Part shown: piece after piece, positions 2,815 to 62,607 of the stretch
Position numbering within the stretch: position 1 is the first letter of the stretch
Layout of the letters: every line of letters starts with the position of its first letter
Source of the DNA: Thermacetogenium phaeum DSM 12270
Lineage (GTDB): Bacteria; Bacillota; DSM-12270; Thermacetogeniales; Thermacetogeniaceae
NCBI RefSeq assembly: GCF_000305935.1
Contig: NC_018870.1
Location: 2,403,001-2,467,000, forward strand
Direction: 5' to 3'
Length of the DNA: 64,000 nucleotides
Position numbers and translations under genes: made by a program
Notes under the pieces: model-generated
Database searches by the model: none
What the model saw: only the letters and a program-made list of their open reading frames with translations
Told to the model about the DNA's origin: nothing

Positions 2815-2844
2815 TTGTTGTATGGATGGTATGTGTGGTATAAT
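2815..2844 (+). promoter_or_regulatory. Transposase promoter of the IS1634-like element
   Basis: TTGTTG (2815-2820), 18-base spacer, TATAAT (2839-2844) with an extended -10 (TGG before TATAAT). The expected transcription start coincides with ATG 2851, so the mRNA may be leaderless. The same layout is present in the other two copies. Confidence 0.6.
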
Positions 2845-2850
2845 GTGGGC

Positions 2851-37133: not shown

Positions 37134-37367
37134 ACAATCATGTCACCTCCGGTGACACCAACAGAGGATGAAAATAGGTGCTAGTCGAATAAAACCTTCA
37201 GCGGCTGGTAACGAGGTCGAAATACCTTGGTGCTTTGAGCCCGATACTTAGACGGACCCCAGCGGCCTGGTGCACCACTGATTGTTGCTCCCATCTGGGA
37301 AGCACGCAGGGCAGATTGCTCATTCAAAGGCCACTGCACCAGCCCTGACTATCCAAAGCCGCTAAAG
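37134..37367 (+). ncRNA. Predicted bridge-RNA region of IS110 copy A (3' side interrupted)
   Basis: Same sequence as the first 234 bases of copy B (see 45161-45405). The nested element enters 9 bases before the transposase ribosome site, so the RNA-like fold is intact but separated from the transposase gene by 1.9 kb. Confidence 0.6.
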
Positions 37368-39262: not shown

Positions 39263-39275
39263 AGGAGGATCTTTG

Positions 39276-40490: not shown

Positions 40491-40588
40491 TCGAGCTCTT
40501 AGTTTTATTCGTTTTTAAGTCTCATTATCCCTTTAATGCCTAGGGTCTGCTTGATTATTGCCTTTTTTGTGAAGCTAATTTTCAGGGC

Positions 40589-42992
40589 AGGTACGCTGAG
40601 AACATAATATTCCTTGTATGCATAAACCACGCCGTCAGGAGTTTCAATTCCTCATAGGTACGCTGAGAACTCTGCACATTGGGGGCATAAAGCGACGCCC
40701 CCAAAACCGTTTCAATTCCTCATAGGTACGCTGAGAACTTCTGTGTCGAAGTCAGTTCCCCTGAGCAGTCCCTGGTTTCAATTCCTCATAGGTACGCTGA
40801 GAACGGAAAGAAAAACATGAGAAGGTTAAGATGCAAAAGTGTTTCAATTCCTCATAGGTACGCTGAGAACTCGAAACGTCGCACGAATCTGTCGCTATCC
40901 TTAGAAGTTTCAATTCCTCATAGGTACGCTGAGAACGCATAAATATCCGAGGTGGTGCTTGCCCGCTCATGGCCGTTTCAATTCCTCATAGGTACTCTGA
41001 GAACAATGCTGGCAAGGTCGTTCTCGCCTGGGCTATGCAGTGTTTCAATTCCTCATAGGTACGCTGAGAACTGAGTTGATAGAACAAATAAAGAGTATGT
41101 ATGGGAAGGGTTTCAATTCCTCATAGGTACGCTGAGAACTATGCCAGTTTAGGCGAAACGGTATATCACAGATAGTTTCAATTCCTCATAGGTACGCTGA
41201 GAACATTTATCATCTTATTGCGGAATGCAATTATGGCACAAGTTTCAATTCCTCATAGGTACGCTGAGAACGGTTGTAATGAGAGCCGGGGAATTGAGGC
41301 ACCGGGGTTTCAATTCCTCATAGGTACGCTGAGAACCCATCCCCCCCGCGCGGAAGGCGAAGCCGCTGCGTTGGTTTCAATTCCTCATAGGTACGCTGAG
41401 AACATTGCCCTGGCGCTGAAGCTGAGCGTGAAAGATGGAGAGTTTCAATTCCTCATAGGTACGCTGAGAACCCGTAGGGATGTGGCTCGGCAGATACAAG
41501 AACACTCGTTTCAATTCCTCATAGGTACGCTGAGAACTTCAATTTGGCGATTGGGAGTTTTGGGATGATGAAGAGTTTCAATTCCTCATAGGTACGCTGA
41601 GAACCCCCTAAAACTCTATTCAACGTAGTGAGCAAACCTGTTTCAATTCCTCATAGGTACGCTGAGAACGGTGCACACTGCCACTGTAATCGTTGGCATT
41701 GTTGGTTTCAATTCCTCATAGGTACGCTGAGAACGCGGTGTACGAGCGTCATCTCTTTGTTAGCCTGGGTTTCAATTCCTCATAGGTACGCTGAGAACCA
41801 AGTTTTTCTCCCGCTTCACCAGCTGGCCGCCCAGGGTTTCAATTCCTCATAGGTACGCTGAGAACCCCCAGCTTTTGGTCGGGCACGAATGCTTGACCAT
41901 GTTTCAATTCCTCATAGGTACGCTGAGAACGTGCGGACTTCCTCACCATTAACCGTATCCCAGCTCGCGTGTTTCAATTCCTCATAGGTACGCTGAGAAC
42001 TTTCAAGAATCTCCATTGCCGCCGCTATGTCGGTGGAGGTTTCAATTCCTCATAGGTACGCTGAGAACGCGGTTTTTGCTTCATTATATACGCATTTTGG
42101 CCGGGGTTTCAATTCCTCATAGGTACGCTGAGAACGCGGTGTACGAGCGTCATCTCTTTGTTAGCCTGGGTTTCAATTCCTCATAGGTACGCTGAGAACG
42201 ACTGGAAGAGGGGGAGCCTAAACAGGCTCTCCCTTAGTTTCAATTCCTCATAGGTACGCTGAGAACGACTGGAAGAGGGGGAGCCTAAACAGGCTCTCCC
42301 TTAGTTTCAATTCCTCATAGGTACGCTGAGAACGCGAATAATAATCATGGAACTTACCTCTTTGCTTCAGTTTCAATTCCTCATAGGTACGCTGAGAACC
42401 TATACCGGTCGCAATAGCCTTAGCAGCCTTGTCCTGCGTTTCAATTCCTCATAGGTACGCTGAAAACGGATACCTGGTCACCGGCGCCGGCAGTTTCTTT
42501 CCTAGAGTTTCAATTCCTCATAGGTACGCTGAAAACAGGAATATCCCGTGTTGCGTCTCCGCCGATGTAAATGGTTTCAATTCCTCATAGGTACGCTGAA
42601 AACGCAAATGCTTGAAAGGATTTTTCCGGTGGTGCGTGTTTCAATTCCTCATAGGTACGCTGAAAACGGTGAGAATACTTCGCTACCTACACCAACAAGG
42701 TATCGTTTCAATTCCTCATAGGTACGCTGAAAACCCGTCAGGATAAAGATACAAATTACCGCTTGTTATCCTGAGTTTCAATTCCTCATAGGTACGCTGA
42801 AAACGTCAGGATGTATGGAACAATGCACAAGCAGTATATGTGTTTCAATTCCTCATAGGTACGCTGAAAACGATAGTTTCCTCGGGGAGTGCCTTCCCGC
42901 AATGCGGGGTTTCAATTCCTCATAGGTACGCTGAAAACTTCTCGGCTGGCAGGCTGATTTAGAGGAGGTGTTCTAAGTTTCAATTCCTCATA
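40589..42992 (-). CRISPR. Array segment B (36 repeats, includes repeat-variant switch)
   Basis: Starts with the second half of the split repeat. Repeats to about 42,400 end GAGAAC, and from the repeat at 42438 onward end GAAAAC. Spacer 41735-41768 recurs exactly at 42136-42169. Spacer 42200-42236 is repeated in the next unit (42267-42303) and contains GGGAGCCT/AGGCTCTCCC, a hairpin-like target. One repeat near 40975 has a G-to-T change. Confidence 0.95.
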
Positions 42993-44899
42993 CCGGAGTT
43001 CGACAGTCCATAGACAAACAGAAGGCCGGAAGCCGCATGGGACACAGAATTCAGTGAATATGTTTTTAAAGGTGTGTTACTAGGCGTTTTTCTTAGCTGT
43101 GGGGTTAATGGAGAAGAGAAGTGGCGGTTCTTTGACGGCTAACGCCTTGAATATCTGCTTCTGAGCAGGGGTGGTTTCGGTCCGCTGCCGTACCTGACCG
43201 GCTGTTCCGCTGAACTCTCCCAGCTGCATTCTCTGCAGGGTGGCCCTGAGGCTGCACCAGGTTTGCCCCGTTCTGTTCTCGGCAATCCTGATCAGCAAGA
43301 GCGCCAGCCAGCAGAGGAGCACATGGGAGCGGATGCGGTCTTCCAGGCGGTGGTAGACCGGGCGCAGCTCCAACCGGGACTTAAGGGTACGAAAGGCGTC
43401 TTCCACCAGCAGCAGCTGTTTGTAGCCCAGGGCGACATCTTCGGCGGAGAGGGTGTCGTCCGAGGTGCGCAGCAGGTATTTGCCGTCGAGTTTTTCTTCT
43501 TCCCTGATCTTGGCCCGGTCGATCTTCGGCAGGCTGCGGGAGTCCAGCTTCAGGTAGCGGCCGTAGACCGGATGGGCCATGAGTTCGCAGACTGCTTTGG
43601 CATGTGTCTTAATATGGGGAAGCTGTTCCTCCAGTTCCTTGATAATTTTTTCCCGCCTGGCTTTGTCCCGGGCAGCCTCTTCGGGGTTGCGCACCAGGAT
43701 GTAGCGCTCCCTGGCCTCGCCGTTTCCGACGACGATCTCCTTGACTTCCAGGTTGTCCCGCACCGTCTGGTAGCGGCCTCCCCGCTTTAAGGCTTGCACG
43801 GTATTTTCCTTGCCGCTGCGCAGCTTCTCCCCGGCTATGTAGTGACCTCCCGCCCGCTGCAGGCAGCGCAGGTTGTCTTCGGAGTTGAACCCCCGGTCCA
43901 GCACGGTGATGACCCGGCCCAGCTTCCAGCCTATGAGGTCCTTCTTTACCTGTTCGACCACAGAGATGTCGGCGGTGTTGCCCGGCCACACCCAGCAGCG
44001 CACCGGGATGCCGTCCCTGGTGACGGCCAGGCCGATCACGGCCTGCGGCAGATCCGGCCGGTGGTCCTTGGAGTGCCCCCGGCGCCGCAGTCCGCCATCC
44101 TCATCTTCGTCCTCGATCTCAAAGTAGGTGGAGGTGGTGTCGAAGTAAAGGATGTCTACTTCCAGGTTGAGCAGGTTGGCCACGGAGTAATAAACCTGCT
44201 TCTGCAGTTCGGCTTCGTTCTCCAGAAGAAAGTCCATCGCCCGGTAGAGCTGCTGCAGGGGTATTTCCTCTACGCCCGGGATCACGGCGTCCTCTTTCAC
44301 CCATTCTTCCACTCCGCGCTTGGACATGGGATCAAGGGCGCGGTTCGCTGCCATGGCAAAGATGGCTCTTTCTACCGGGGTCTTGTACTGCCGCTTCTTG
44401 AGCAGGGTTTCAAGTACGCCTTTGATCCCCAGCTCTTCCCAGAGCCTGTCCAGGACCCAGGCTCCTCCCAGTGGACGGCTGGTGATAAATTTGAGGGGTG
44501 CTGCACCTGTTTCCGCTTCATAACGCAGGGTCTCCCCGGGCCCCAGGAACCGGTTGATGCTCTTTACTAGACGCTTTAATGCCTCCCGGTCGACCTCCTC
44601 TTCACGCCCGAAGTTGAAGAGCACTTTGGCCTTGGCGCACCTGGCCTGGGGGTCCCATTGATTATGGGCAAGCTGGATGTAGCGGACGACGGAGCCGTCT
44701 TTGTTCTTGCGCTGGATGGTTCGGATGTACATGTCTACATTATACCACATGTACCATCCATACAACAAGAGATATAACACAAAACGTGTGCCTATGCATT
44801 TTTCGCTTTTTCTCCACTCCCAAACCCGCTAACCCTTGATATTAAAGGATCGCTCTTCAAAAATTTCGCTCTGAATGCCTCGTTAGTGTCGAACTCCGG
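42993..44899 (-). mobile_element. IS1634-like element copy 2, inserted in a CRISPR repeat
   Basis: 1,907 bp with CCGGAGTTCGACA termini. TCATA, bases 12-16 of the CRISPR repeat, is duplicated (42988-42992 and 44900-44904). Transposase is oriented with the array transcript. Confidence 0.94.
43080..44732 (-). CDS. IS1634-family transposase (copy 2)
   Basis: 550 aa from ATG 44732, same protein as copy 1 from the MYIR start; the upstream promoter region carries small base changes (WYMWYNVD versus WYVWYNVG in the non-coding lead-in frame). All DDE-domain segments are intact. Its promoter points leftward along the CRISPR array, so it could produce antisense-free crRNA read-through from inside the array. 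Confidence 0.92.
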   Translation of the reverse strand: MYIRTIQRKNKDGSVVRYIQLAHNQWDPQARCAKAKVLFNFGREEEVDREALKRLVKSINRFLGPGETLRYEAETGAAPLKFITSRPLGGAWVLDRLWEELGIKGVLETLLKKRQYKTPVERAIFAMAANRALDPMSKRGVEEWVKEDAVIPGVEEIPLQQLYRAMDFLLENEAELQKQVYYSVANLLNLEVDILYFDTTSTYFEIEDEDEDGGLRRRGHSKDHRPDLPQAVIGLAVTRDGIPVRCWVWPGNTADISVVEQVKKDLIGWKLGRVITVLDRGFNSEDNLRCLQRAGGHYIAGEKLRSGKENTVQALKRGGRYQTVRDNLEVKEIVVGNGEARERYILVRNPEEAARDKARREKIIKELEEQLPHIKTHAKAVCELMAHPVYGRYLKLDSRSLPKIDRAKIREEEKLDGKYLLRTSDDTLSAEDVALGYKQLLLVEDAFRTLKSRLELRPVYHRLEDRIRSHVLLCWLALLLIRIAENRTGQTWCSLRATLQRMQLGEFSGTAGQVRQRTETTPAQKQIFKALAVKEPPLLFSINPTAKKNA

Positions 44900-45160
44900 T
44901 CATAGGTACGCTGAAAACCGGTAGATAGTGCCGACGAGGCTCTTGTTTCAATTCCTCATAGGTACGCTGAAAACCGATATTGTTCAAACTTTGCATTCAT
45001 TTCGTTCCTGTTTCAATTCCTCATAGGTACGCTGAAAACCCATGTACTTCATAATATCATCGAAGAACGTTTCTTTGTTTCAATTCCTCATAGGTACGCT
45101 GAAAACGAAATATACCATGCGGGGGTGTTTCAGTTCCGGTTCAGTTTCAATTCCTCATAG
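44900..45160 (-). CRISPR. Array segment C (4 repeats)
   Basis: Short stretch between the IS1634-like element and IS110 copy B, with GAAAAC-type repeats. The first is the 3' part of a split repeat and the last is cut after CATAG. Confidence 0.93.
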
Positions 45161-45405
45161 ACAATCATGTCACCTCCGGTGACACCAACAGAGGATGAAA
45201 ATAGGTGCTAGTCGAATAAAACCTTCAGCGGCTGGTAACGAGGTCGAAATACCTTGGTGCTTTGAGCCCGATACTTAGACGGACCCCAGCGGCCTGGTGC
45301 ACCACTGATTGTTGCTCCCATCTGGGAAGCACGCAGGGCAGATTGCTCATTCAAAGGCCACTGCACCAGCCCTGACTATCCAAAGCCGCTAAAGGAGGAT
45401 CTTTG
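45161..45405 (+). ncRNA. Predicted IS110 bridge RNA
   Basis: The leader folds into at least one convincing stem-loop. CTGGTGCA (45294-45301) pairs with TGCACCAG (45362-45369), and an apical GCTCCCA/TGGGAAGC hairpin (45314-45330) separates two internal-loop strands. One strand carries GATTGT (45307-45312), the reverse complement of the element's left end ACAATC. The other carries CAGGGCAGA (45334-45342), identical to the right end plus AG core plus first base of the left end. This is the expected donor-loop layout. Upstream, TTCAGCG (45224-45230) is complementary to the repeat's right half (CGCTGAA), a candidate target guide. The left target guide is not resolved. Confidence 0.65.
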
Positions 45406-46620
45406 ATGGATGTCGTGTTCCCGTACTGTTGTGGTTTGGACGTTCACAAAAACTCTGTCGTTGCCTGCGTTATTACGCCAGATGAAAAGGAAATAAGAAC
45501 ATTTGGTACCATGACCAGAGATCTTTTAAACCTGGCTGACTGGCTTACCAGCAAAGGCTGTACACATGTGGCCATGGAAAGTACCGGGGTTTATTGGAAG
45601 CCGATCTATAATATCCTTGAACAGTATCAGCTGGAACTCCTGGTCGTCAACGCCAAGCATATTAAAGCCGTTCCAGGTCGCAAAACCGATGTCAAAGATG
45701 CCGAATGGATTGCAGACCTCTTGCGCCACGGTCTTTTGAAAGGAAGCTACATTCCTGACAGAGAACAGCGGGAATTAAGGGAACTGGTCGGTTACCGCAA
45801 AAGCCTCGTCGAAGAACGTGCCAGGGAAGTTAACCGTATCCAAAAAACGCTGGAAGGCGCCGGGATTAAACTGTCATCAGTGGCAACAGATGTTGTCGGC
45901 GTCTCCGGCAGGGCGATGATCGAAGGTATCATTTCCGGTATCGATGATCCCGCTGTTCTCGCAGACTTTGCACAAAAGAAATTAAAGAAAAAGAAAGAGC
46001 AACTGGAGCAAGCCCTGTTTGGATTGGTGGGAAAACACCAGCGATTGCTTTTAGCAGCCCAACTGCGCCATATCGATTATCTTGATCAGGAAATTGCACG
46101 CCTTGATCAACAGATCGAGGAGCGGATGCGCCCTTTTGAGGCAGAGCTGGCTCTTTTGGATACTATTCCAGGAGTTGGGAGAAGAACCTCTCAAGTTATT
46201 TTAGCCTGTATAGGTGCAGATATGTCACGATTTCCATCCGCAGCTCACCTGTCTTCATGGGCAGGGGTGGCCCCCGGCAATAATGAAAGCGCCGGTAAAC
46301 GCAAGAGCGGTAAAACAACCAAAGGTAATACGCTGTTACACACTACCTTGATCCAGGCTGCCAGGGCTGCCTCCCGCACTAAAAACACCTACCTTTCCGC
46401 TCTGTATCACCGTGTTGCTGCCAGAAGAGGCGCTAACAGGGCTGCTGTTGCTGTTGCTCATTCTATTTTGGTCAGCGTTTATTACATGTTGATTAGAAGA
46501 GTGCCTTATCATGATCTCGGCGGTGACTATTTTGAGAAAAGAAATTCTAAAGCGGTTGTCAATCGTGCTGTTAAGCAATTAGAACAATTGGGTTATCGTG
46601 TGAGCATCGAGGTTGCATAA
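45406..46620 (+). CDS. IS110-family transposase (copy B)
   Basis: 404 aa from ATG 45406, ribosome site AGGAGGATCTTTG. Identical in sequence to the copy A product: RuvC-like DEDD domain at the N terminus, a long coiled-coil ([18 protein letters not shown]), and the C-terminal Tnp20 domain with the conserved serine region [14 protein letters not shown]. It would act as an RNA-guided recombinase with the leader RNA. The only uninterrupted copy in the window, so the likely source of activity for the mini-elements. Confidence 0.93.
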
Positions 46621-46718
46621 TCGAGCTCTTAGTTTTATTCGTTTTTAAGTCTCATTATCCCTTTAATGCCTAGGGTCTGCTTGATTATTGCCTTTTTTGT
46701 GAAGCTAATTTTCAGGGC

Positions 46719-48089
46719 AGGTACGCTGAAAACTAAAACTCGTATTCCTTCCCAGTCTTTTTCTTTGGGCAGTTTCAATTCCTCATAGGTACGCTGAAAA
46801 CACGGAACCACTCCTGCCAATATGCTTCTTTTTCGTTTCGTTTCAATTCCTCATAGGTACGCTGAAAACAGAGCAAAGCAATATCCGGGGGCGTCACATG
46901 CTTACAGTTTCAATTCCTCATAGGTACGCTGAAAACCCCGCTTTCGGAGCTACCGGACGAACCGGCGGGATTCGTTTCAATTCCTCATAGGTACGCTGAA
47001 AACCCGAAACTGTATAGGAGAGAAGTGCGGGTGTTTCGAGTTTCAATTCCTCATAGGTACGCTGAAAACTCCGGGAAAGAAACGAAGTAATTACTCCCCT
47101 TACCGTTTCAATTCCTCATAGGTACGCTGAAAACGAGGAAGCTACCGTTTCGTGTCGTATTATGATTTATTGGTTTCAATTCCTCATAGGTACGCTGAAA
47201 ACGCATGCCCCGGTAAGTATTATCCGCTGCAGGAGATGTTTCAATTCCTCATAGGTACGCTGAAAACAAAAAGGGAGGAATGCGAAATGAGGAAGAACGT
47301 CGCGTTTCAATTCCTCATAGGTACGCTGAAAACGACAAGCACACATTCTTTGCTGTTCTTGAAGAGATGGTTTCAATTCCTCATAGGTACGCTGAAAACA
47401 ACCAGATTTGGAAGAGGGTGTTGTCCTATCAAAGGTTTCAATTCCTCATAGGTACGCTGAAAACTCCCCGGCCGGCCGGTGCCTGCCGCAAGGATGACGG
47501 TTTCAATTCCTCATAGGTACGCTGAAAACTGGAACGACGCAGGCCCGTACTGGCGGATTTCGTAGTTTCAATTCCTCATAGGTACGCTGAAAACAGGAGA
47601 ATTTTCCTTTGTTTCCCTTGCCCCTGTTCTGTTTCAATTCCTCATAGGTACGCTGAAAACTGGACTACCAAATTTAAATAAGCCATTGCGAGAGAGCAGT
47701 TTCAATTCCTCATAGGTACGCTGAAAACAAGAAAGCTCTTGCTACGTTGCATGGAGGCGTTTCGTTTCAATTCCTCATAGGTACGCTGAAAACCTCACTG
47801 CGGCGCGATCCGGCGTTATGAGCGGAGGAGTTTCAATTCCTCATAGGTACGCTGAAAACCTTCCTAATGAACCATCCCAATAAACTCACCGTCAAGGTTT
47901 CAATTCCTCATAGGTACGCTGAAAACGGAGAGTTTGCTGCTGATATATCGATTGATCTTCATGTTTCAATTCCTCATAGGTACGCTGAAAACCCCGGACA
48001 ATACCCTCATGATACCGTCCTCGGTTCTTCGTTTCAATTCCTCATAGGTACGCTGAAAACATCGCCTCCTTAGATTGAATCCTCTCGTC
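46719..48089 (-). CRISPR. Array segment D (20 repeats)
   Basis: GAAAAC-type repeats. The last spacer (from 48061) is interrupted at 48090 by IS66. Spacer 47334-47369 recurs in different lengths at 51061-51097 and 53436-53470. Confidence 0.95.
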
Positions 48090-48149
48090 GTAAGCGTAAA
48101 ATAACCCCCACCTTGTGTTTGAGGTGGGGGCTTAAGCATTCCAATTAAT

Positions 48150-49157
48150 TCACCGGCAGGTAGGGGGTAAGGTTTCGGACCAGGGGAGGAGCCGGTCCAA
48201 CGCCTCTTCATCCTGGGGGTCCAGGTTGGGAAGTTTTTCGAAGAGGTAAGTGAGATAGTGGAAGGGGTTTAACCCATTCTCCTTGGCCGTTTCTATGATA
48301 CTGTAGACAATAGCGCTGGCCCTCGCACCCCGAGGGGTGTTGGCAAATAGCCAGTTCTTGCGGCCAATAACAAAGGGTTTTATAGAACGCTCGCTGCGGT
48401 TGTTATCAATTTCCAAACGCCCGTCTTGTAAAAAGGCCGTTAGCTTATCCCATTGGCCCAGGCAATAGTAAACCGCCTGCCCAAAGGTACTTTTGGGCAA
48501 CACTTTCGCTTTCTGCTTCTTCAGCCATGCCAAAAAGTCCTCCAGCACGGGCCGGCTGCGCCCCTGCCGTATTTGATATCGTTCCTCCGGGGTTTTGTCT
48601 TTAAGCTCGCGCTCTATGGCAAAAAGCCTGTTGCAGAACTCCAGCCCCTCCCGGGCAGCCACTGCTTTGTTTCTTTTATCTTGCGGCAGGGCTTTTAAAG
48701 CTTCGTCAAACTTGCGCCGGGCATGGGCCCAGCAGCCCACCAGGGTGACCCCGGAAAGTCCATTGTAGCCGTCATAGCCGTCAACATGCAAATAGCCCTT
48801 AAAACCTGCCAGGAACCGGCGGGGGTGTTTGCCGGCCCGGGTGGTCTGGTAGTCGTAAAGGATAATCGGGGGACCGTCCCACCCGCTACGGTAAAGCCAG
48901 AGGAATGATTTGGTGGTAGGCTCCCTTCCCGGTTCATGAAGTACCTGTAATGTGGTTTCGTCGGCATGGAGAATGTCTCTTTTGAGGAGGTGTTCATGAA
49001 GACGGTCGTAAATAAGGGTTAAGTAGGTGTTAGCTCCATGAAGCACCCAGTTGGCCATGGTCTGCCGGGAAAGGTCTATCCCCAAACTTTTAAACTGCTG
49101 CTCCTGGCGGTAGAGGGGCAATCCTGCCCCGTATTTCTGGGTCATAATGTAGGCCAT
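48150..49157 (-). pseudogene. IS66 TnpC transposase, C-terminal part (after frameshift)
   Basis: Encodes the DDE catalytic domain: [65 protein letters not shown], and [20 protein letters not shown] with the catalytic Glu. The reading frame is shifted relative to the N-terminal part at about 49,165 (PGS then SLMAYIM), so a full-length TnpC is not made unless by frameshifting. Confidence 0.85.
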
Positions 49158-49705
49158 GAGGGAGGACTTCCCGGAAGTACAGGAGCAAGCATAGGCGCCG
49201 TGATAACAGGAGTGGTTATTTCTTCTTTCTCGCAGCGGCGGCAGGAATAGACGTAGCGCACGTGCTTAACCACTTTCACCTGGGCCGGGATGATTTTGAG
49301 CTCTTGCCGCACCTCAGTGCTCATTTCATGTAAAGGGCCACCGCAGCACGGGCAGACCCGCTCCTCTTCGGGCAGACGGTGCTCTACTATTTCTACCGGC
49401 AGTTTTTCCAGGTTCATCTCCCGGCGGGTACGTGTTTTGCGGCGCTGGTAGGTGATGGTCTCCAAATCCGGCTCCGCTTCCTCCGGCCGGGCTTCCGCTT
49501 CCGCTTCGTTAAAAAGTAAAAGCTGCTCTTTTAGAGGTTCAGTCCGCTCGCTGGAAGAACCGAATTGCCGTTTCTTACTTAAACGGAACTGCTCCATAAA
49601 CCAGTTTAATTTAGCGGTCAGTTCGGCGTTTTGTTGTTCCAGCTGGACACATCGCTCTCGCAGCTCTTCTATAGTCATGGTGGCGATAGATTGGGAAGTG
49701 TTCAT
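49142..49705 (-). pseudogene. IS66 TnpC transposase, N-terminal part (before frameshift)
   Basis: 187 aa with the N-terminal coiled coil ([20 protein letters not shown]), the [16 protein letters not shown] segment and a zinc-binding CPCCGG plus CRRCE pair. Ends out of frame with [14 protein letters not shown] where IS66 proteins continue into the catalytic domain. A single-base indel explains it. Confidence 0.85.
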
Positions 49706-49788
49706 GCTTTAAGGATTCGACGAATCGTGTCGAATTCCTCTAAAATCAACAACAGACAAAAAAATATTTCTTTCTAAGGCGATTTCTT

Positions 49789-50145
49789 TTACAAGATGGT
49801 GCGCGCTTTTACTTCGGGATGAGCTTTAGGCTGTTTTAAGGGGAGGCCGTCAAGCAGCCAGCGCAGCTCCCGGCGGCTGATGGTGATGGTTGAAGAAGTG
49901 GTATCTTGAGGCCATATGAATTTGCCCTTCTCCAGCCGGCGGTAATAAAGCCAAAACCCGTTGTGCTCCCAGTGGAGGATCTTCAGTTTGTCCCTCTTAC
50001 GGTTGCAGAAGACAAAGAGGCAAGAAGAAAAAGGGTCTAATTCGAAGCCTTCCTTGACCAGTACCGCCAGGCCGTCAATAGATTTGCGCAGGTCTGTTGC
50101 TCCGCAGGCGAGGTAAACCCGGTCGATACCAGCTTCGTTTAGCAT
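49789..50145 (-). CDS. tnpB: IS66 accessory protein TnpB
   Basis: 118 aa, family signature AGIDRVYLACGATDLRKSIDGLAVLV and FCNRKRDKLKILHWEHNGFWLYYRRLEKG. Needed for IS66 transposition but of unknown biochemistry. Overlaps the end of tnpA by 7 bases. Confidence 0.92.
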   Translation of the reverse strand: MLNEAGIDRVYLACGATDLRKSIDGLAVLVKEGFELDPFSSCLFVFCNRKRDKLKILHWEHNGFWLYYRRLEKGKFIWPQDTTSSTITISRRELRWLLDGLPLKQPKAHPEVKARTIL

Positions 50146-50459
50146 AACGCCATCAGCACCTGAACTACCTTGGTGAGTAAGGCCGGGTCAAAGCCGGGTC
50201 TTACCTCGATGCTGGCCGGTCCTATTTTGACCAGTAGGGCCTGTTCTAGGGAATCTTCCTCGCTTATTTCTACCGACAGCCACCGGTTGGAAATCTCCGG
50301 AGGAGCCGGGGTCTGGTTCTTAAACTTCCGCAGCCAGTACCATAACTGCCTGGGGTTAATGCCTTCGTGGGAGGCGCACCATTCTTTAACGCTTTGCCCG
50401 CTTTCCCTGTATTCGGCTATGCGAGCTTCCCAAAGTTTTTGTAATTCGGCTCTGGTCAT
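50139..50459 (-). CDS. tnpA: IS66 accessory protein TnpA
   Basis: 106 aa. N-terminal helix-turn-helix-like segment LQKLWEARIAEYRESGQSVKEWCASHEGINPRQLWYWLRKF, then a variable tail ending VRPGFDPALLTKVVQVLMALC. First gene of the IS66 operon. Confidence 0.9.
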   Translation of the reverse strand: MTRAELQKLWEARIAEYRESGQSVKEWCASHEGINPRQLWYWLRKFKNQTPAPPEISNRWLSVEISEEDSLEQALLVKIGPASIEVRPGFDPALLTKVVQVLMALC

Positions 50460-50548
50460 AAGGGGAAATCCTCCTCAGTTCGTTTTCTGAGGAAGATTAT
50501 CCCTTAATCTCGAGCACTGTGCCAAGGTGGGTTGTATTTGACGCTTAC

Positions 50549-52390
50549 CTCTCGTCATCTGCAGTTTCAATTCCTCATAGGTACGCTGAAAACTTTGACC
50601 ACCACCTCATCCTTAGCAAATGCTAACGGAGTTTCAATTCCTCATAGGTACGCTGAAAACGCTCTTCAAGCGGAATCCCATCATCATTCACAACATGTTT
50701 CAATTCCTCATAGGTACGCTGAAAACGATGCATCTGAAGCACTTAAATACGCGGAGAAGCTCAAGTTTCAATTCCTCATAGGTACGCTGAAAACGGAGCC
50801 TGCCGGCGGAGTAAAATAGGCTTGCCCGAGTTTCAATTCCTCATAGGTACGCTGAAAACAATGAAAGGAGGAGGAAGTAAGGTGTTCATGGTCGTGTTTC
50901 AATTCCTCATAGGTACGCTGAAAACTCCTCCTCCTTTCATTCAAATTCCAGCGTAATCCTGGTTTCAATTCCTCATAGGTACGCTGAAAACTCAAAGTAC
51001 ATCACGAAGGAGTTAGGTCTATATATACCAGTTTCAATTCCTCATAGGTACGCTGAAAACCGACAAGCACACATTCTTTGCTGTTCTTGAAGAGATGGTT
51101 TCAATTCCTCATAGGTACGCTGAAAACTTCATCAGCACTCCTTTCATTTCTTTTTCGGATGTCGTTTCAATTCCTCATAGGTACGCTGAAAACGTTAACC
51201 AAGGAAATGCAGTAGCTGAGCAGTCTCCAGTTTCAATTCCTCATAGGTACGCTGAAAACAGTTGAAGGCGATGCGCGGTCGGATGTGGAGCTTTAGTTTC
51301 AATTCCTCATAGGTACGCTGAAAACAAAGGAGATTGATGACCTCTACCTTGAGAATCCTGCGTTTCAATTCCTCATAGGTACGCTGAAAACGGAATCCTT
51401 TACGGATGGGGCTGCGGTGATTACGGAGTTTCAATTCCTCATAGGTACGCTGAAAACCAGTTTCGCCGGGATAAATATTCGCCGCCCATGCCGGTTTCAA
51501 TTCCTCATAGGTACGCTGAAAACACCAGTGCGTCCAACTCTCTGCCGGCTTCCAGTTTGTGTTTCAATTCCTCATAGGTACGCTGAAAACCGTTGTAAGG
51601 TTTAACGAGTTCTTTACGTTTTTCTTCGTTTCAATTCCTCATAGGTACGCTGAAAACTCAGTACCATCTGCATTATATGTCGTAAAAGTATAAGTTTCAA
51701 TTCCTCATAGGTACGCTGAAAACGGAAGAGATGCAATCCCTCCCGAAAGTGTAAGCTGAGTTTCAATTCCTCATAGGTACGCTGAAAACTCAGAAAACTA
51801 CCATCTGACCACCAGACAGGTCTTACACTAGGTTTCAATTCCTCATAGGTACGCTGAAAACCAGCAACTGACATTTCAAGACCTCCTTAAACTTAATTGT
51901 TTCAATTCCTCATAGGTACGCTGAAAACAATGATTACGGGAACAGATTCCTCGGTGGTTACTATGGTTTCAATTCCTCATAGGTACGCTGAAAACTGGCG
52001 TATCGTGCCGCCGTGCCCCGAGAATCGCTCACGCGTTTCAATTCCTCATAGGTACGCTGAAAACGAAAGGAGTGCTGATGAATCGTGACTGCTCGTGAGT
52101 TCTGTTTCAATTCCTCATAGGTACGCTGAAAACTTATGCGTCCCGATGCTGAGTATGAAGTTATCGAAGTAGTTTCAATTCCTCATAGGTACGCTGAAAA
52201 CCCGGGCCGGTAAAGCGGATTCTCCTGGATCTGGTGGGGTGTTTCAATTCCTCATAGGTACGCTGAAAACTTCTCCCTCCTGCTTTTATGAGTTTTTTAG
52301 CGTTTCGTTTCAATTCCTCATAGGTACGCTGAAAACACATTTTCAATTTTATGTAGATTGAAATATCGTTCTGGTTTCAATTCCTCATAG
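50549..52390 (-). CRISPR. Array segment E (28 repeats)
   Basis: Begins with the second half of the IS66-split spacer. Contains spacers near 50860 and 50926 that overlap each other on opposite strands (AATGAAAGGAGGAGGA). It also holds one member each of the related pairs at 50727/57399 and 51127/52064. Ends with a repeat cut after CATAG by a mini-element. Confidence 0.95.
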
Positions 52391-52690
52391 ACCACCATGC
52401 CGCCAGCGGCGGCACCATCAGAGAATGAAAATACCCGGGGTCTGCCGGCGAGCGACCTATGGAAGGCCGGGTAACAGGACAGGCGAAGCGAGGATGACAG
52501 GCCGGAATGCGAGCTTAAGAGTTTCAACGGAATGGATTTGCTGCGTGGCCAAACGCTGCGATTGGCAGAAGCAGTTTGTAACATGTTACGCAGCATCCCA
52601 GGGCTGTCCCAAAGCGAGCCGTCGTCCTGTCCGGCCTGGAATCGGGAGTCGAGCGGTAGACCGGCAGGGTATGCAATCTATTTTCAGGGC
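52391..52690 (+). mobile_element. 300-bp gene-less mini-element, copy 1, in a CRISPR repeat
   Basis: Starts ACCACCATGCCGCC and ends ATTTTCAGGGC before AG-GTACGCTGAAAAC: the same repeat position, orientation and right end as the IS110 copies. The left end matches IS110 in spaced blocks (AC-A-CATG...GGCACCA-CAGAG-ATGAAAATA). An internal block GGCCGGGTAACAGG resembles GGCTGGTAACGAGG of the IS110 leader. No credible gene. A strong stem GCTGCGT/ACGCAGC with an inner GCCAA/TTGGC hairpin suggests a structured RNA. It contains ACCTATG, equal to repeat sequence across the core. Confidence 0.85.
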
Positions 52691-55143
52691 AGGTACGCTG
52701 AAAACCGGTGTGTGATTGTATGAAAGATGACGATGACCAGGGCGTTTCAATTCCTCATAGGTACGCTGAAAACATGTGCCGGAGGTGTGCCCGAACTGCG
52801 CAGATATCCGTTTCAATTCCTCATAGGTACGCTGAAAACCCCGGTAGTAGACGGTAGGAACCCGATGGAAGTGGGTTTCAATTCCTCATAGGTACGCTGA
52901 AAACTTTGACTTTCTTTGACTTTTTAGTTTGCCGTCGCCAGTTTCAATTCCTCATAGGTACGCTGAAAACCTTTTTAGTTTGCCGTCGCCATAATAATCC
53001 TAGTAATCGTTTCAATTCCTCATAGGTACGCTGAAAACCAGAAACTGGGTGAAATTGTGTTGGCGGACATATACAGTTTCAATTCCTCATAGGTACGCTG
53101 AAAACCCAGAGATGCACTTTCACTTTTGAGGTGTCCAAAGGGTTTCAATTCCTCATAGGTACGCTGAAAACGAGATACTTTGACGTTGTGGATATGTTGG
53201 AATGGCCGTTTCAATTCCTCATAGGTACGCTGAAAACCATGCTTAGGATGCAGAGAGGGGATAAAAATGACATGTTTCAATTCCTCATAGGTACGCTGAA
53301 AACGGGGTAATTCTTCCTTTCTCTGCCAAGTCGATTAAGTTTCAATTCCTCATAGGTACGCTGAAAACGCACGCTTTACGGCACGCCCACCCTGACCGCG
53401 CCCCAGTTTCAATTCCTCATAGGTACGCTGAAAACACAAGCACACATTCTTTGCTGTTCTTGAAGAGATGGTTTCAATTCCTCATAGGTACGCTGAAAAC
53501 GCCGACTAAGGCTGCGGCTGCGGCTGCGGCTCCTGCGTTTCAATTCCTCATAGGTACGCTGAAAACTGTGGAGTAAGGGGGGATATTGTGATAGCACTTT
53601 TTAGTTTCAATTCCTCATAGGTACGCTGAAAACAGAGCAAGGGCTTCTATCTCTTCCGTACGGGTTTCCTTGTTTCAATTCCTCATAGGTACGCTGAAAA
53701 CGCGGGACTTCTATCCAGTCGATTCCCTGCTCGGTGTTTCAATTCCTCATAGGTACGCTGAAAACCCTCTTTCCTGTCTCCCAGTTATCTGGGAAACAGG
53801 GTTTCAATTCCTCATAGGTACGCTGAAAACACAGATAAGGAGTTAAGAGACTTAATTGCCGAAGTTGTTTCAATTCCTCATAGGTACGCTGAAAACCGGA
53901 ATCTGCTGAACCTAATTTGATGGAGTTGTACGGGTTTCAATTCCTCATAGGTACGCTGAAAACAAAAGAAATTCAAGCTCTACCATTGCGACGCACCTCG
54001 TTTCAATTCCTCATAGGTACGCTGAAAACGGAAGGAGAACTCGAGAAGGGACTTGCTCTTCTCGGGGTTTCAATTCCTCATAGGTACGCTGAAAACTATT
54101 ACATGGGAATTAGAAGAACGGGAAGGTTCTTAGTTTCAATTCCTCATAGGTACGCTGAAAACGAAGTACAGGGTGATTGCGGAATTTGTCGATTTGGAAG
54201 GTTTCAATTCCTCATAGGTACGCTGAAAACCATCTATTATAAGTAAACAATATCCTTCTTTTCCTAGTTTCAATTCCTCATAGGTACGCTGAAAACTTAG
54301 CGTGATCGAGGGCATGATGAAGCTCCTCGAAGGTTTCAATTCCTCATAGGTACGCTGAAAACAGAGAGGAAAGTGGCATATTCTCGTCCTATCGCGCCAG
54401 TTTCAATTCCTCATAGGTACGCTGAAAACCAAGAATAGAAAGTCCCTTCTCGAGATCCCCTTCCGTTTCAATTCCTCATAGGTACGCTGAAAACTTCTGT
54501 TTTGCATTTTTTGGCACACTTTTGTTGAAGTTTCAATTCCTCATAGGTACGCTGAAAACTCCATCAGGCGTGATGAGCGCAATGACGGTGCTTGCGTTTC
54601 AATTCCTCATAGGTACGCTGAAAACGGTATTATCATATTACCTGCCCCGCGGTCGGCGCTCTGTTTCAATTCCTCATAGGTACGCTGAAAACTCTGTTCA
54701 AGGTCTTTTAAAGCCGCATCGCTAAAACGTTTCAATTCCTCATAGGTACGCTGAAAACGAAGAAGTTTCCACTAAAGTTAGGAAAAAAGTCCTAGTTTCA
54801 ATTCCTCATAGGTACGCTGAAAACGGTAGAGGTGAAGAAGCACCCGGCGAGCAGAGCCCAGTTTCAATTCCTCATAGGTACGCTGAAAACCGGCATCGGA
54901 ATTTTAACTGGATACGAGGGGGTTGAGTTTCAATTCCTCATAGGTACGCTGAAAACAAGAGAAAAATCGGGATGATTATGGGGCTTGTATATTGTTTCAA
55001 TTCCTCATAGGTACGCTGAAAACAGAAAGATGGTGAATTCATACTCAATACCGTCCCGGAGTTTCAATTCCTCATAGGTACGCTGAAAACGCATGGACTG
55101 TGAGCGGATGTACGTGCTCTGGGAGTAGTTTCAATTCCTCATA
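52691..55143 (-). CRISPR. Array segment F (37 repeats)
   Basis: GAAAAC-type repeats. Neighbouring spacers near 52905 and 52971 overlap by about 20 bases (CTTTTTAGTTTGCCGTCGCC), so they come from adjacent positions of one target. The spacer near 53501 is a GCTGCG repeat. The spacer near 53765 is nearly palindromic. Ends with a repeat cut by the third IS1634-like copy. Confidence 0.95.
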
Positions 55144-57050
55144 CCGGAGTTCGACACTAACGAGGCATTCAGAGCGAAATTTTTGAAGAGCGATCCTTTA
55201 ATATCAAGGGTTAGCGGGTTTGGGAGTGGAGAAAAAGCGAAAAATGCATAGGCACACGTTTTGTGTTATATCTCTTGTTGTATGGATGGTACATGTGGTA
55301 TAATGTAGACATGTACATCCGAACCATCCAGCGCAAGAACAAAGACGGCTCCGTCGTCCGCTACATCCAGCTTGCCCATAATCAATGGGACCCCCAGGCC
55401 AGGTGCGCCAAGGCCAAAGTGCTCTTCAACTTCGGGCGTGAAGAGGAGGTCGACCGGGAGGCATTAAAGCGTCTAGTAAAGAGCATCAACCGGTTCCTGG
55501 GGCCCGGGGAGACCCTGCGTTATGAAGCGGAAACAGGTGCAGCACCCCTCAAATTTATCACCAGCCGTCCACTGGGAGGAGCCTGGGTCCTGGACAGGCT
55601 CTGGGAAGAGCTGGGGATCAAAGGCGTACTTGAAACCCTGCTCAAGAAGCGGCAGTACAAGACCCCGGTAGAAAGAGCCATCTTTGCCATGGCAGCGAAC
55701 CGCGCCCTTGATCCCATGTCCAAGCGCGGAGTGGAAGAATGGGTGAAAGAGGACGCCGTGATCCCGGGCGTAGAGGAAATACCCCTGCAGCAGCTCTACC
55801 GGGCGATGGACTTTCTTCTGGAGAACGAAGCCGAACTGCAGAAGCAGGTTTATTACTCCGTGGCCAACCTGCTCAACCTGGAAGTAGACATCCTTTACTT
55901 CGACACCACCTCCACCTACTTTGAGATCGAGGACGAAGATGAGGATGGCGGACTGCGGCGCCGGGGGCACTCCAAGGACCACCGGCCGGATCTGCCGCAG
56001 GCCGTGATCGGCCTGGCCGTCACCAGGGACGGCATCCCGGTGCGCTGCTGGGTGTGGCCGGGCAACACCGCCGACATCTCTGTGGTCGAACAGGTAAAGA
56101 AGGACCTCATAGGCTGGAAGCTGGGCCGGGTCATCACCGTGCTGGACCGGGGGTTCAACTCCGAAGACAACCTGCGCTGCCTGCAGCGGGCGGGAGGTCA
56201 CTACATAGCCGGGGAGAAGCTGCGCAGCGGCAAGGAAAATACCGTGCAAGCCTTAAAGCGGGGAGGCCGCTACCAGACGGTGCGGGACAACCTGGAAGTC
56301 AAGGAGATCGTCGTCGGAAACGGCGAGGCCAGGGAGCGCTACATCCTGGTGCGCAACCCCGAAGAGGCTGCCCGGGACAAAGCCAGGCGGGAAAAAATTA
56401 TCAAGGAACTGGAGGAACAGCTTCCCCATATTAAGACACATGCCAAAGCAGTCTGCGAACTCATGGCCCATCCGGTCTACGGCCGCTACCTGAAGCTGGA
56501 CTCCCGCAGCCTGCCGAAGATCGACCGGGCCAAGATCAGGGAAGAAGAAAAACTCGACGGCAAATACCTGCTGCGCACCTCGGACGACACCCTCTCCGCC
56601 GAAGATGTCGCCCTGGGCTACAAACAGCTGCTGCTGGTGGAAGACGCCTTTCGTACCCTTAAGTCCCGGTTGGAGCTGCGCCCGGTCTACCACCGCCTGG
56701 AAGACCGCATCCGCTCCCATGTGCTCCTCTGCTGGCTGGCGCTCTTGCTGATCAGGATTGCCGAGAACAGAACGGGGCAAACCTGGTGCAGCCTCAGGGC
56801 CACCCTGCAGAGAATGCAGCTGGGAGAGTTCAGCGGAACAGCCGGTCAGGTACGGCAGCGGACCGAAACCACCCCTGCTCAGAAGCAGATATTCAAGGCG
56901 TTAGCCGTCAAAGAACCGCCACTTCTCTTCTCCATTAACCCCACAGCTAAGAAAAACGCCTAGTAACACACCTTTAAAAACATATTCACTGAATTCTGTG
57001 TCCCATGCGGCTTCCGGCCTTCTGTTTGTCTATGGACTGTCGAACTCCGG
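55144..57050 (+). mobile_element. IS1634-like element copy 3, inserted in a CRISPR repeat
   Basis: 1,907 bp; the same TCATA duplication (55139-55143 and 57051-57055) at the same repeat position as copy 2 but in the opposite orientation. Its transposase opposes the array transcript. Confidence 0.94.
55311..56963 (+). CDS. IS1634-family transposase (copy 3)
   Basis: 550 aa from ATG 55311, the same protein as copy 2. Extended -10 TATAAT immediately upstream puts the predicted transcription start at the ATG. Intact DDE transposase. Transcription from this copy runs into array segment G as antisense to pre-crRNA. Confidence 0.92.
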   Translation: MYIRTIQRKNKDGSVVRYIQLAHNQWDPQARCAKAKVLFNFGREEEVDREALKRLVKSINRFLGPGETLRYEAETGAAPLKFITSRPLGGAWVLDRLWEELGIKGVLETLLKKRQYKTPVERAIFAMAANRALDPMSKRGVEEWVKEDAVIPGVEEIPLQQLYRAMDFLLENEAELQKQVYYSVANLLNLEVDILYFDTTSTYFEIEDEDEDGGLRRRGHSKDHRPDLPQAVIGLAVTRDGIPVRCWVWPGNTADISVVEQVKKDLIGWKLGRVITVLDRGFNSEDNLRCLQRAGGHYIAGEKLRSGKENTVQALKRGGRYQTVRDNLEVKEIVVGNGEARERYILVRNPEEAARDKARREKIIKELEEQLPHIKTHAKAVCELMAHPVYGRYLKLDSRSLPKIDRAKIREEEKLDGKYLLRTSDDTLSAEDVALGYKQLLLVEDAFRTLKSRLELRPVYHRLEDRIRSHVLLCWLALLLIRIAENRTGQTWCSLRATLQRMQLGEFSGTAGQVRQRTETTPAQKQIFKALAVKEPPLLFSINPTAKKNA

Positions 57051-60000
57051 TCATAGGTACGCTGAAAACGCCGAGAAAATGTTCTCGGTGGCCTGGGATT
57101 ACGCTGTTTCAATTCCTCATAGGTACGCTGAAAACGATGCCCTCCTTTCTTGCGATTGAACGGCAAGAAGTGGTTTCAATTCCTCATAGGTACGCTGAAA
57201 ACGGGGGTGTTTCCAGCCGTAATTGATAATCCAAAGTGTTTCAATTCCTCATAGGTACGCTGAAAACAATCAAAGCATGTCGCCCGAGGCTCATTGACGA
57301 GGGTTTCAATTCCTCATAGGTACGCTGAAAACTTTCTGGGCACTTTCGGATGTCCAGAAGTACCCGAAGTTTCAATTCCTCATAGGTACGCTGAAAACTG
57401 CATCTGAAGCACTTAAATACGCGAAGAAGCTCAAGTTTCAATTCCTCATAGGTACGCTGAAAACGTAATTACTCCCCTTACCCAGATAGCACCCAAGCAT
57501 CGGTTTCAATTCCTCATAGGTACGCTGAAAACGTGCACTGATGGTCGTTTCTGCCTGGCCTGTTTTCACGTTTCAATTCCTCATAGGTACGCTGAAAACA
57601 CGCAAAAAACGTTTGTCCTCTTACTGATGTAGAATGTTTCAATTCCTCATAGGTACGCTGAAAACTCTCCGAATGCCCGGCTAAAAAGCGGAAGGCTTCT
57701 GTTTCAATTCCTCATAGGTACGCTGAAAACCGAAGCATGGTAAACATGATAACGACCATCATAGAGTTTCAATTCCTCATAGGTACGCTGAAAACTTTCG
57801 TTCCCCCCTTTGTTTGTTTCCTGTTTCCATTGTAGTTTCAATTCCTCATAGGTACGCTGAAAACCTCCTCTCTCACTTCTTTCGTCTTGGTGTCAAATCG
57901 TTTCAATTCCTCATAGGTACGCTGAAAACTGCGGGAGCGCCTGGACTACTACGAGGACTACTCAGGTTTCAATTCCTCATAGGTACGCTGAAAACGGTTC
58001 GGCGGGGCGTGGGATGCATACGGGGACGAGGAGTTTCAATTCCTCATAGGTACGCTGAAAACCTTGAAGAAGCCTTTTACGTGGTAGTTCATAAGATGGT
58101 TTCAATTCCTCATAGGTACGCTGAAAACAGGGGTATTATGTTGCAGTTCCGGAATTGCACCCGTGTTTCAATTCCTCATAGGTACGCTGAAAACGCAACC
58201 GAACGCCTTACCAGTTGTTGGAGATTGATGAGTTTCAATTCCTCATAGGTACGCTGAAAACCAAAGAAGAACTGACCAAGATGGTGGCTGATGCGGTGTT
58301 TCAATTCCTCATAGGTACGCTGAAAACGAAGAAACGCGAGCGGACGATTTGGCCTATAAAGAAAGTTTCAATTCCTCATAGGTACGCTGAAAACTCAAAA
58401 GGTTGCGGGCCGAGCGGGAGGCCGCGGCCGAAGTTTCAATTCCTCATAGGTACGCTGAAAACTGAAAGAGCGGGTAGCAAAAGAATATATGGAATCAGTT
58501 TCAATTCCTCATAGGTACGCTGAAAACCGGGTCTGGAAATTCCATCCTCAAGAGTTCGGATTGGTTTCAATTCCTCATAGGTACGCTGAAAACGGCAGTA
58601 TAAAGAAAAGCGTTTGCCTGTCTATTGTGGGTTTCAATTCCTCATAGGTACGCTGAAAACTAAGAACGCGATAGGTTGAAAGCGGAGTTACAAACATGTT
58701 TCAATTCCTCATAGGTACGCTGAAAACGGAACGGATTGTGCTTTCTACAATCTGTTTGATATCCCGGGTTTCAATTCCTCATAGGTACGCTGAAAACGAC
58801 CGGGATTCTGGTTGCTTACGGCGTTGGATCCGCGTTTCAATTCCTCATAGGTACGCTGAAAACTATCGAGAGATGTACCTGCGGCGGCATCCCTTATGCG
58901 GTTTCAATTCCTCATAGGTACGCTGAAAACCCAATGTTGGGCACCGAAATGGTAAGCTCTGTGCCATGGTTTCAATTCCTCATAGGTACGCTGAAAACGA
59001 TACGTTACCGTCCCCTTCGTCCTTCTTGGCACTTTCGTTTCAATTCCTCATAGGTACGCTGAAAACCAGGCCTGGTTAATTTATGCTGAACACTTCGGTG
59101 GTCGGTTTCAATTCCTCATAGGTACGCTGAAAACTCCTGTAGCCTTTACTGCGGGTCTTCGTTCAATGCCGTTTCAATTCCTCATAGGTACGCTGAAAAC
59201 GCATTCCGCCCCAGCCGCCGGCGATCTGGGTACTGGTTTGTTTCAATTCCTCATAGGTACGCTGAAAACCTGACCACGATGAACGGTTTCTCCGCATCCG
59301 GCCTTAGTTTCAATTCCTCATAGGTACGCTGAAAACATTTTCCACTCTTCATCGAACTCTTTCTCGTGGATGGTTTCAATTCCTCATAGGTACGCTGAAA
59401 ACGGGCAAGTTCTGCGGCAACGGGAGCAAGGGCATCGGTTTCAATTCCTCATAGGTACGCTGAAAACGCAGCTTTAGCACCTTCAATTGTTGTAGCAACT
59501 TCTGGTTTCAATTCCTCATAGGTACGCTGAAAACGTGGATAAAGTCCTTCTCCGGGGCGAGAAGGAAGAAGTTTCAATTCCTCATAGGTACGCTGAAAAC
59601 AAAAATTCCTCTTTTTCCTGGATCGTCGGGTTCATTTGTTTCAATTCCTCATAGGTACGCTGAAAACAAACGTGTTGATTCGGCAAGATATTCAAGTTCT
59701 TTATTTTGTTTCAATTCCTCATAGGTACGCTGAAAACCGGCGATGTAAACGACGACTACGGTTACAGTTATGTGTTTCAATTCCTCATAGGTACGCTGAA
59801 AACCACGGGATATTCCGGCAACCCTGGCTGGAATACCGATGTTTCAATTCCTCATAGGTACGCTGAAAACGCTGCCGTAAGCCAGGTTGTGTTCGGCCCG
59901 GATCTGTTGTTTCAATTCCTCATAGGTACGCTGAAAACACTGCTCTTCCCAAAGGCTTAGCCCCCAGGTAGCAGTGTTTCAATTCCTCATAGGTACGCTG

Positions 60001-60456
60001 AAAACTGCGAGCCCCTCAGTCCAGAGCCCATGCCTCCGGAGTTTCAATTCCTCATAGGTACGCTGAAAACCGAGCCGGCAGACGAACGGACACTGCGATA
60101 TATGAAGGTTTCAATTCCTCATAGGTACGCTGAAAACATCACACAGATTACCGAGTTTTTGCCTGAGTTCTTGGTTTCAATTCCTCATAGGTACGCTGAA
60201 AACGGCTCACCTTGAGATTTCTGCCGCCCCTGAGTCCTAGTTTCAATTCCTCATAGGTACGCTGAAAACAAAAACTATATGATGCACTATGCCGGGGCAC
60301 TTCAAGTTTCAATTCCTCATAGGTACGCTGAAAACTGAAACCTGGCGTCAGGTTGTCATCGGCCCAAAGGGGTTTCAATTCCTCATAGGTACGCTGAAAA
60401 CCGGACCGCTTCAACCCCAGGCAGGAGGTTTTTGACCTGGTTTCAATTCCTCATAG
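57051..60456 (-). CRISPR. Array segment G (51 repeats)
   Basis: Longest uninterrupted run, GAAAAC-type repeats. The spacer at 57399-57434 is a one-base variant of the spacer at 50727 (CGAAGAAG versus CGGAGAAG). The spacer near 57464 overlaps the target of the one near 47069. Ends with a repeat cut by mini-element copy 2. Confidence 0.95.
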
Positions 60457-60756
60457 ACCACCATGCCGCCAGCGGCGGCACCATCAGAGAATGAAAATAC
60501 CCGGGGTCTGCCGGCGAGCGACCTATGGAAGGCCGGGTAACAGGACAGGCGAAGCGAGGATGACAGGCCGGAATGCGAGCTTAAGAGTTTCAACGGAATG
60601 GATTTGCTGCGTGGCCAAACGCTGCGATTGGCAGAAGCAGTTTGTAACATGTTACGCAGCATCCCAGGGCTGTCCCAAAGCGAGCCGTCGTCCTGTCCGG
60701 CCTGGAATCGGGAGTCGAGCGGTAGACCGGCAGGGTATGCAATCTATTTTCAGGGC
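60457..60756 (+). mobile_element. 300-bp gene-less mini-element, copy 2, in a CRISPR repeat
   Basis: Appears identical to the element at 52391-52690 over its whole length, with the same junctions (CATAG on the left, AG-GTACGCTGAAAAC on the right) and orientation. Flanking spacers differ, so this is a second insertion event, not an array duplication. It lies only 11 repeats from the leader, in one of the youngest parts of the array. Confidence 0.85.
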
Positions 60757-61503
60757 AGGTACGCTGAAAACGACTGGCAGAGATTCGGGATGTCGTGAGG
60801 CAGTATCGTTTCAATTCCTCATAGGTACGCTGAAAACCCTGCAACCTAACACAGTCACAGACTGCCCAAGCATGTTTCAATTCCTCATAGGTACGCTGAA
60901 AACTCTAGAGGGAGGTGTGTATTATTATACTTTTACGACATAGTTTCAATTCCTCATAGGTACGCTGAAAACGGCAAATGTGTTGAATTGGTTGATAGAG
61001 CAGTTTGCGTTTCAATTCCTCATAGGTACGCTGAAAACTTGAAGTGAAAACCCCAGGCGGTAAACTGTCAAAATATGTTTCAATTCCTCATAGGTACGCT
61101 GAAAACGTTCAAGCTCATCACCACACAATTGCCGTATATCTTGTTTCAATTCCTCATAGGTACGCTGAAAACTTTTCATTATCGAAAAAGCAGAGAGCGT
61201 TGAAGAGAGTTTCAATTCCTCATAGGTACGCTGAAAACTTCTCCATTCCTATTCCAGCCTTTCCATGTACTTACGTTTCAATTCCTCATAGGTACGCTGA
61301 AAACAACGAAGCCGCAAACTGCATCCGCATCCCCTACTCGCGTTTCAATTCCTCATAGGTACGCTGAAAACTGGAAAATTACGGAAGGAGGAACAAAGTA
61401 TGTTCAGTTTCAATTCCTCATAGGTACGCTGAAAACGAGGGAGAATGCCGCATGGTCGGGTCGAGTTCCGCGGGTTTCAATTCCTCATAGGTACGCTGAA
61501 AAC
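60757..61503 (-). CRISPR. Array segment H (leader-proximal, 11 repeats)
   Basis: Youngest spacers. The first repeat after the leader is 61474-61503, of GAAAAC type and with no mutation. Confidence 0.95.
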
Positions 61504-62594: not shown

Positions 62595-62607
62595 TCTCGA
62601 TCCCTCT

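What the first reader, a model, noticed from the sequence alone, without database searches (positions are those of the whole stretch)
52391..60756. Two identical 300-bp gene-less elements occupying the same CRISPR-repeat site: possible RNA-only IS110 derivatives
Elements at 52391-52690 and 60457-60756 have no ORF, share the IS110 right end (TTTTCAGGGC-AG), a block-wise similar left end and an internal GGCYGG-GTAAC-AGG-like block, and sit at the identical repeat position in the same orientation. They contain long stems. Inference: non-autonomous elements that are essentially a mobile guide RNA with two ends, moved in trans by the intact IS110 transposase. Gene-less IS110 derivatives that parasitise CRISPR arrays are not something I know to be described.
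Basis: partly seen in the sequence, partly recalled or inferred. Interest (0 to 1): 0.93.

Follow-up and report, generated by a model that had tools for sequence, protein, structure and literature searches.

The report
Gene-less IS110 hitchhikers in CRISPR array
The two 300-base inserts are gene-less relatives of a jumping gene (IS110) that are probably moved by that jumping gene's own enzyme and guide RNA; about 60 such inserts are scattered over this genome, two in its CRISPR memory bank, and they carry a folded RNA of unknown role rather than a guide of their own.

Summary
In detail: two identical 300-bp inserts split the same CRISPR repeat at the same base and in the same orientation, with AG at each junction, as do two copies of a full IS110 element. 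The reading as CRISPR-parasitic "mobile guide RNAs" holds only in part. The family has about 26 near-full copies genome-wide; only these two lie in this array. A second gene-less family with the same ends has 35 matches; its interior is the Rfam RNA TwoAYGGAY. Relatives carry 72-141-nt end-only versions, too short for a bridge RNA. In 20 autonomous relatives the bridge RNA's guides covary with insertion site and right end (0 of 100,000 shuffles). The resident IS110's donor guide (CAGGGCAG) equals the right end of both inserts; none of 43 gene-less copies carries such a guide for itself. Best explanation: non-autonomous IS110 elements mobilised in trans. CRISPR repeats are recurrent targets of this clade, and relatives' guides fit the repeat well; the resident guide fits poorly. 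IS110 and MITE insertions in CRISPR repeats were reported in 2016; the donor-guide link and RNA cargo appear new.

The parts
52391..52690 (+). gene-less IS110-type element, copy A (AG core at 52389-52390 and again at 52691-52692)
60457..60756 (+). gene-less IS110-type element, copy B, identical; 11 intact repeats from the cas-side end of the array
52391..52433 (+). left end with terminal hairpin (TGCCGCC..GGCGGCA, 52398-52414), shared with IS110 relatives
52438..52665 (+). interior hairpin RNA, TwoAYGGAY-like basal module (cargo; not a bridge RNA)
52681..52690 (+). right end TTTTCAGGGC (+AG); CAGGGCAG equals donor guide of the resident IS110
45161..46718 (+). autonomous IS110 element in the same repeat position
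45409..46620 (+). IS110 transposase (PF01548 + PF02371)
45227..45392 (+). predicted bridge RNA of the IS110
45246..45254 (+). right target guide region (GAAATACCT, pairs AG-GTATTTC)
45271..45278 (+). left target guide ATACTTAG
45334..45341 (+). left donor guide CAGGGCAG
37134..40588 (+). second IS110 copy in the same repeat position, itself interrupted by a different IS110-family element (transposase 37645-38892, minus)
36391..61503 (-). CRISPR array, 192 intact repeats (RF01315 CRISPR-DR2), next to cas6, cas2, cas1 at 61857-63866; minus strand inferred from the repeat's ATTGAAAC end

Best explanation
The two inserts are non-autonomous members of an IS110 clade. They keep only what the recombinase and bridge RNA read on the donor: the left-end hairpin region (~45 nt) and the right end (TTTTCAGGGC-AG). 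A resident IS110 (45161-46718) supplies recombinase and bridge RNA in trans: its donor loop reads CAGGGC-AG, the right end of both inserts, and the complex joins the insert to an AG-centred target. CRISPR repeats are struck repeatedly because target guides of this clade can read N-AG-GTA-type sites, in relatives close matches to the repeat (CTYATAG-GTARG), and because the array offers about 196 copies of a non-essential site. The interior is passenger: a conserved hairpin of the TwoAYGGAY type, not a bridge RNA. Shown: ends, guide covariation, copy families, co-location. Inferred: movement in trans, and which element moved them.
For: About 26 near-full copies plus a ~205-nt internal-deletion subfamily in the genome, with different flanks and the same ends. 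Guides identified by covariation in autonomous relatives: left target guide vs own target 79/120 matches against 41.7 expected, left donor guide vs own right end 93/102 against 72.0, 0 of 100,000 shuffles each; a column scan finds the same register and a right target guide. The resident donor guide is identical to the right end of 11 of 43 gene-less copies, both CRISPR copies included, and within one mismatch of 27. End-only elements of 72-141 nt, several at more than one site. CRISPR insertion at the same base in G055 (all four IS copies), G131, Thermoanaerobacter wiegelii and T. thermocopriae. Experimentally, bridge RNA can act in trans on a 22-bp donor (PMC11208160), and noncoding RNA plus transposase in trans moves cargo between IS ends (PMC11187229).
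Against: The resident IS110's target guide fits this genome's repeat poorly: 2/6 left and 3/4 right positions beside the core; 4.9% of other AG sites in the window do as well. Many gene-less copies have right ends (CATGACAG, CATGGCAG) that no autonomous element found in this genome reads exactly. No movement or RNA was measured. Spread of the two identical copies by recombination between repeats is not excluded, though all four flanking spacers differ.
Confidence: 0.78

Rival explanations
1. One reading: the insert is a mobile guide RNA; its interior is a reduced bridge RNA that guides its own insertion into CRISPR repeats.
For: Stable, conserved fold with compensatory changes; same repeat position twice.
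Against: No copy carries an exact 8-mer of its own right end or own target inside (0 of 43); interior nearly constant while targets vary; end-only relatives and deletion derivatives are mobile; most copies lie outside CRISPR arrays.
Confidence: 0.07
2. The second CRISPR copy arose by recombination or gene conversion between repeats, not by transposition.
For: 100% identity of copies A and B; repeats are identical and tandem.
Against: All four flanking spacers differ; homology available is only 17 + 13 bp; full IS110 copies occupy the same base and do so in other genomes.
Confidence: 0.12
3. CRISPR insertion is incidental: loose AG-centred targeting, seen in the array only because it is long and dispensable.
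For: Only 2 of about 26 copies are in the array; the resident guide fits the repeat weakly; another array of about 100 repeats has regular spacing and no insert.
Against: Same base and orientation in four of four; in G055 all four IS copies lie in CRISPR repeats, and guides of relatives match the repeat.
Confidence: 0.3

Closest known systems
IS110 family insertion sequences with bridge RNA / seekRNA (IS621, ISEc21; PMC11208160, PMC11187229)
   Same: Left-end noncoding bridge RNA with target and donor loops, dinucleotide core, DEDD recombinase in the autonomous partner; donor ends suffice in trans.
   Different: The inserts lack recombinase and bridge RNA; in this clade the right target guide lies 5' of the left target guide in the RNA. 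I did not verify the order in IS621 from the text.
IS110 and MITE insertions in CRISPR repeats of Thermoanaerobacter (PMC4852346, 2016)
   Same: IS110 copies, an IS1634 copy and a MITE splitting CRISPR direct repeats.
   Different: That paper predates bridge RNAs; in the passages I read it gives no mechanism and does not tie the MITE to IS110.
MITEs
   Same: Short, gene-less, multi-copy, moved by a relative's enzyme.
   Different: The ends here are not terminal inverted repeats, and only the two-base AG core is repeated at the junctions.
TwoAYGGAY RNA (RF01731; PMC2864571)
   Same: Second gene-less family matches over the full model, three copies above the gathering score; the finding's family shares the basal AYGGA module.
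   Different: The finding's own 300-nt family reaches no Rfam match to it.

Membership tests
IS110 family (autonomous partner, 45161-46718) | DEDD transposase domain PF01548 plus PF02371 | tested here: met
   132.7 and 81.1 bits, over cut-offs
IS110 family (autonomous partner, 45161-46718) | bridge RNA whose guides match target and donor | tested here: met
   for the clade; for this copy the donor guide matches 8/8, the target guide weakly
IS110-derived non-autonomous element (the two inserts) | same ends and core dinucleotide as the autonomous partner | tested here: met
IS110-derived non-autonomous element (the two inserts) | several copies at unrelated sites | tested here: met
IS110-derived non-autonomous element (the two inserts) | moved in trans by the partner | not testable with these tools
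   inferred from donor-guide match
Bridge RNA (interior of the inserts) | loops matching own donor and target | tested here: not met
   exact 8-mers, 0 of 43 for both
TwoAYGGAY RNA RF01731 (interior of the 300-nt family) | score above gathering threshold | tested here: not met
   only the second gene-less family meets it

The most novel reading that the evidence does not exclude
A two-tier parasitism of CRISPR memory: an IS110 lineage whose bridge RNA is programmed to the host's CRISPR repeats, exploited by gene-less elements that carry a TwoAYGGAY-type RNA which actively helps them (for example by competing with or modifying bridge-RNA loading) rather than riding as ballast.
Probability: 0.15. 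Interest if true: 0.87.

Novelty: new variant of a known kind. Interest (0 to 1): 0.62.

Why it matters
It gives natural examples of what was shown only with engineered plasmids: IS110 donors reduced to their two ends and probably served by another element's bridge RNA. It suggests an RNA-guided mechanism for the 2016 observation that IS110 splits CRISPR repeats, with guides in relatives that nearly spell the repeat. It also gives a mobile-element context to the orphan Rfam family TwoAYGGAY. All three are testable with existing bridge-RNA assays.

Tried and rejected
Decayed transposase: rejected, no transposase remnant and about 26 similar copies. Shared GGCYGG-GTAAC-AGG block as bridge-RNA core: rejected, not kept in the other autonomous elements. 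Self-guiding interior: own right-end and target 8-mers absent in 43 copies. Known RNA for the 300-nt interior: no Rfam match. Segmental duplication of the array: flanking spacers differ. TwoAYGGAY as an IS110-specific RNA: rejected, found in 51 of 398 Bacillota genomes, mostly in long hairpins without IS110 ends in the loci read. A right donor guide was looked for by covariation and not found.

Full report
Observation. The two 300-base stretches are identical and split the same CRISPR repeat at the same base, AG being present at both junctions. The array has 192 intact repeats and lies beside cas6, cas2 and cas1. Two full copies of an IS110 element split the same repeat at the same base; one is interrupted by a different IS110-family element. 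Copy B lies 11 intact repeats from the cas-side end, so it is probably young (inference). The genome is a single contig of 2,939,057 bases; I recall this as Thermacetogenium phaeum DSM 12270, not tested.

Copies elsewhere. The 300-nt family has about 26 near-full copies at 84-100% identity and a set with one internal deletion (~205 nt, at least six copies, same breakpoints). Their flanks differ; nearly all show an AG core, often ...GGC-AG. Only the two copies in the window sit in this CRISPR array. Some copies sit at the right end of another gene-less element, giving tandems. One related genus carries many 84-86% copies.

A second family. The tandem partners led to a second gene-less family with the same ends, 35 matches in the genome. 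Its interior is the Rfam family TwoAYGGAY, RF01731: 16 matches, three above the gathering score. The 300-nt family does not match Rfam but shares the basal module GAGCGACC-TAYGGARG ... CYGGARTC-GGGAGYGAGC (read). Its fold has 32 pairs, 97.8% of cells paired and 10 pairs with two-sided changes over 34 sequences; that support comes mostly from three divergent homologues, two of them alike, so few independent events. In loci of the related genus the RNA lies in the opposite orientation to the ends, and close relatives of the interior occur where I saw no IS110 ends. The RNA is therefore cargo separable from the ends.

Smaller relatives. In other genomes, elements of 72-141 nt consist of the left-end hairpin and the right end with little between, some at more than one site or in tandem. 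There is no room for a bridge RNA of the usual size.

Bridge RNA of the autonomous partner. In the 5' noncoding region of relatives I located the guides by motif and tested them. Over 20 elements the left target guide matches the element's own left flank at 79 of 120 positions (41.7 expected), and over the 17 with both parts the left donor guide matches the own right end at 93 of 102 (72.0 expected); no shuffle of 100,000 reached either. Elements are related, so the shuffle count is not an exact probability. A scan of all columns recovered the same register plus a right target guide. The resident IS110 has donor guide CAGGGCAG, the right end of both inserts, of 11 of 43 gene-less copies exactly and of 27 within one mismatch. 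No gene-less copy carries its own right-end or own target 8-mer inside (0 of 43), against 9 exact and 8 one- or two-mismatch donor matches in 17 autonomous elements. The positive control gave only 7 of 19 because right ends were found automatically there.

CRISPR targeting. An exact-pattern scan of one genome per species found the left end joined to a CRISPR-type repeat in Thermoanaerobacter wiegelii (two places), T. thermocopriae, Desulforamulus putei (decayed) and three metagenome bins at contig ends; the remaining three hits are unrelated. In G055 all four copies, two of them truncated, lie in CRISPR repeats, as does the one copy in G131. Guides there nearly spell the repeat: CTTATAG/GTAAG or CTCATAG/GTAGG against CTYATAG-GTARG. 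The resident IS110 of the window is the exception: 2/6 and 3/4, as good as 4.9% of other AG sites in the window. Why it sits in the array twice is not fully explained.

Prior work. IS110, IS1634 and a MITE in CRISPR repeats of Thermoanaerobacter were reported in 2016 (PMC4852346). Thermus CRISPR repeats were reported as matching the end of IS1000, an IS110 member (PMC6352166). Action of bridge RNA or seekRNA in trans on end-only donors was shown experimentally (PMC11208160, PMC11187229). I found no paper joining bridge-RNA guides to CRISPR repeats, or TwoAYGGAY RNA to IS110 ends, in the open library held here; subscription journals are mostly not covered.

Verdict. Non-autonomous IS110 elements, probably moved in trans by a resident element whose donor guide fits their end, with a TwoAYGGAY-type RNA as cargo. 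Not mobile guide RNAs, and not dedicated to CRISPR arrays.

Noticed in passing
window 42970-44905 and 55146-57055 (transposase ORFs 43080-44780 minus, 55263-56963 plus): Two copies of a DDE transposase element (PF01609; IS1634-like by comparison with PMC4852346) split CRISPR repeats at ...CTCATA|CATAG..., next to the IS110 site, in opposite orientations with CATA at both junctions. A third copy of its gene lies at 2803-4503.
   Followed up: partly
Rfam RF01731 in G000 and 50 other Bacillota genomes (L226-L254): TwoAYGGAY RNAs are multi-copy and often sit inside long inverted repeats whose sequence differs from genome to genome, as if the RNA were the head of a palindromic mobile element.
   Followed up: partly
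window 15206-16399 and 23165-24358: Two nearly identical 397-aa genes (dihydropyrimidine/dihydroorotate dehydrogenase-like with ferredoxin motif, by eye) in direct repeat about 8 kb apart.
   Followed up: no
window 47330, 51060, 53436; 50727 and 57399; 47086 and 57465: The same or nearly the same spacer appears several times in the array with slightly different trimming, suggesting repeated acquisition from one protospacer.
   Followed up: no
G000 2204621-2211209: A second array of about 100 repeats (CTCATAGGTAGG type) has regular spacing and no IS110-type insert.
   Followed up: partly
bridge RNAs of this IS110 clade (alignment): The right target guide lies 5' of the left target guide; whether this differs from IS621 was not checked against its published structure.
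   Followed up: partly
IS copy at G000 1245342-1246901 (L063): Third IS110 copy outside CRISPR: left junction AG, right junction TG, as if inserted at a target with a mismatched core.
   Followed up: no
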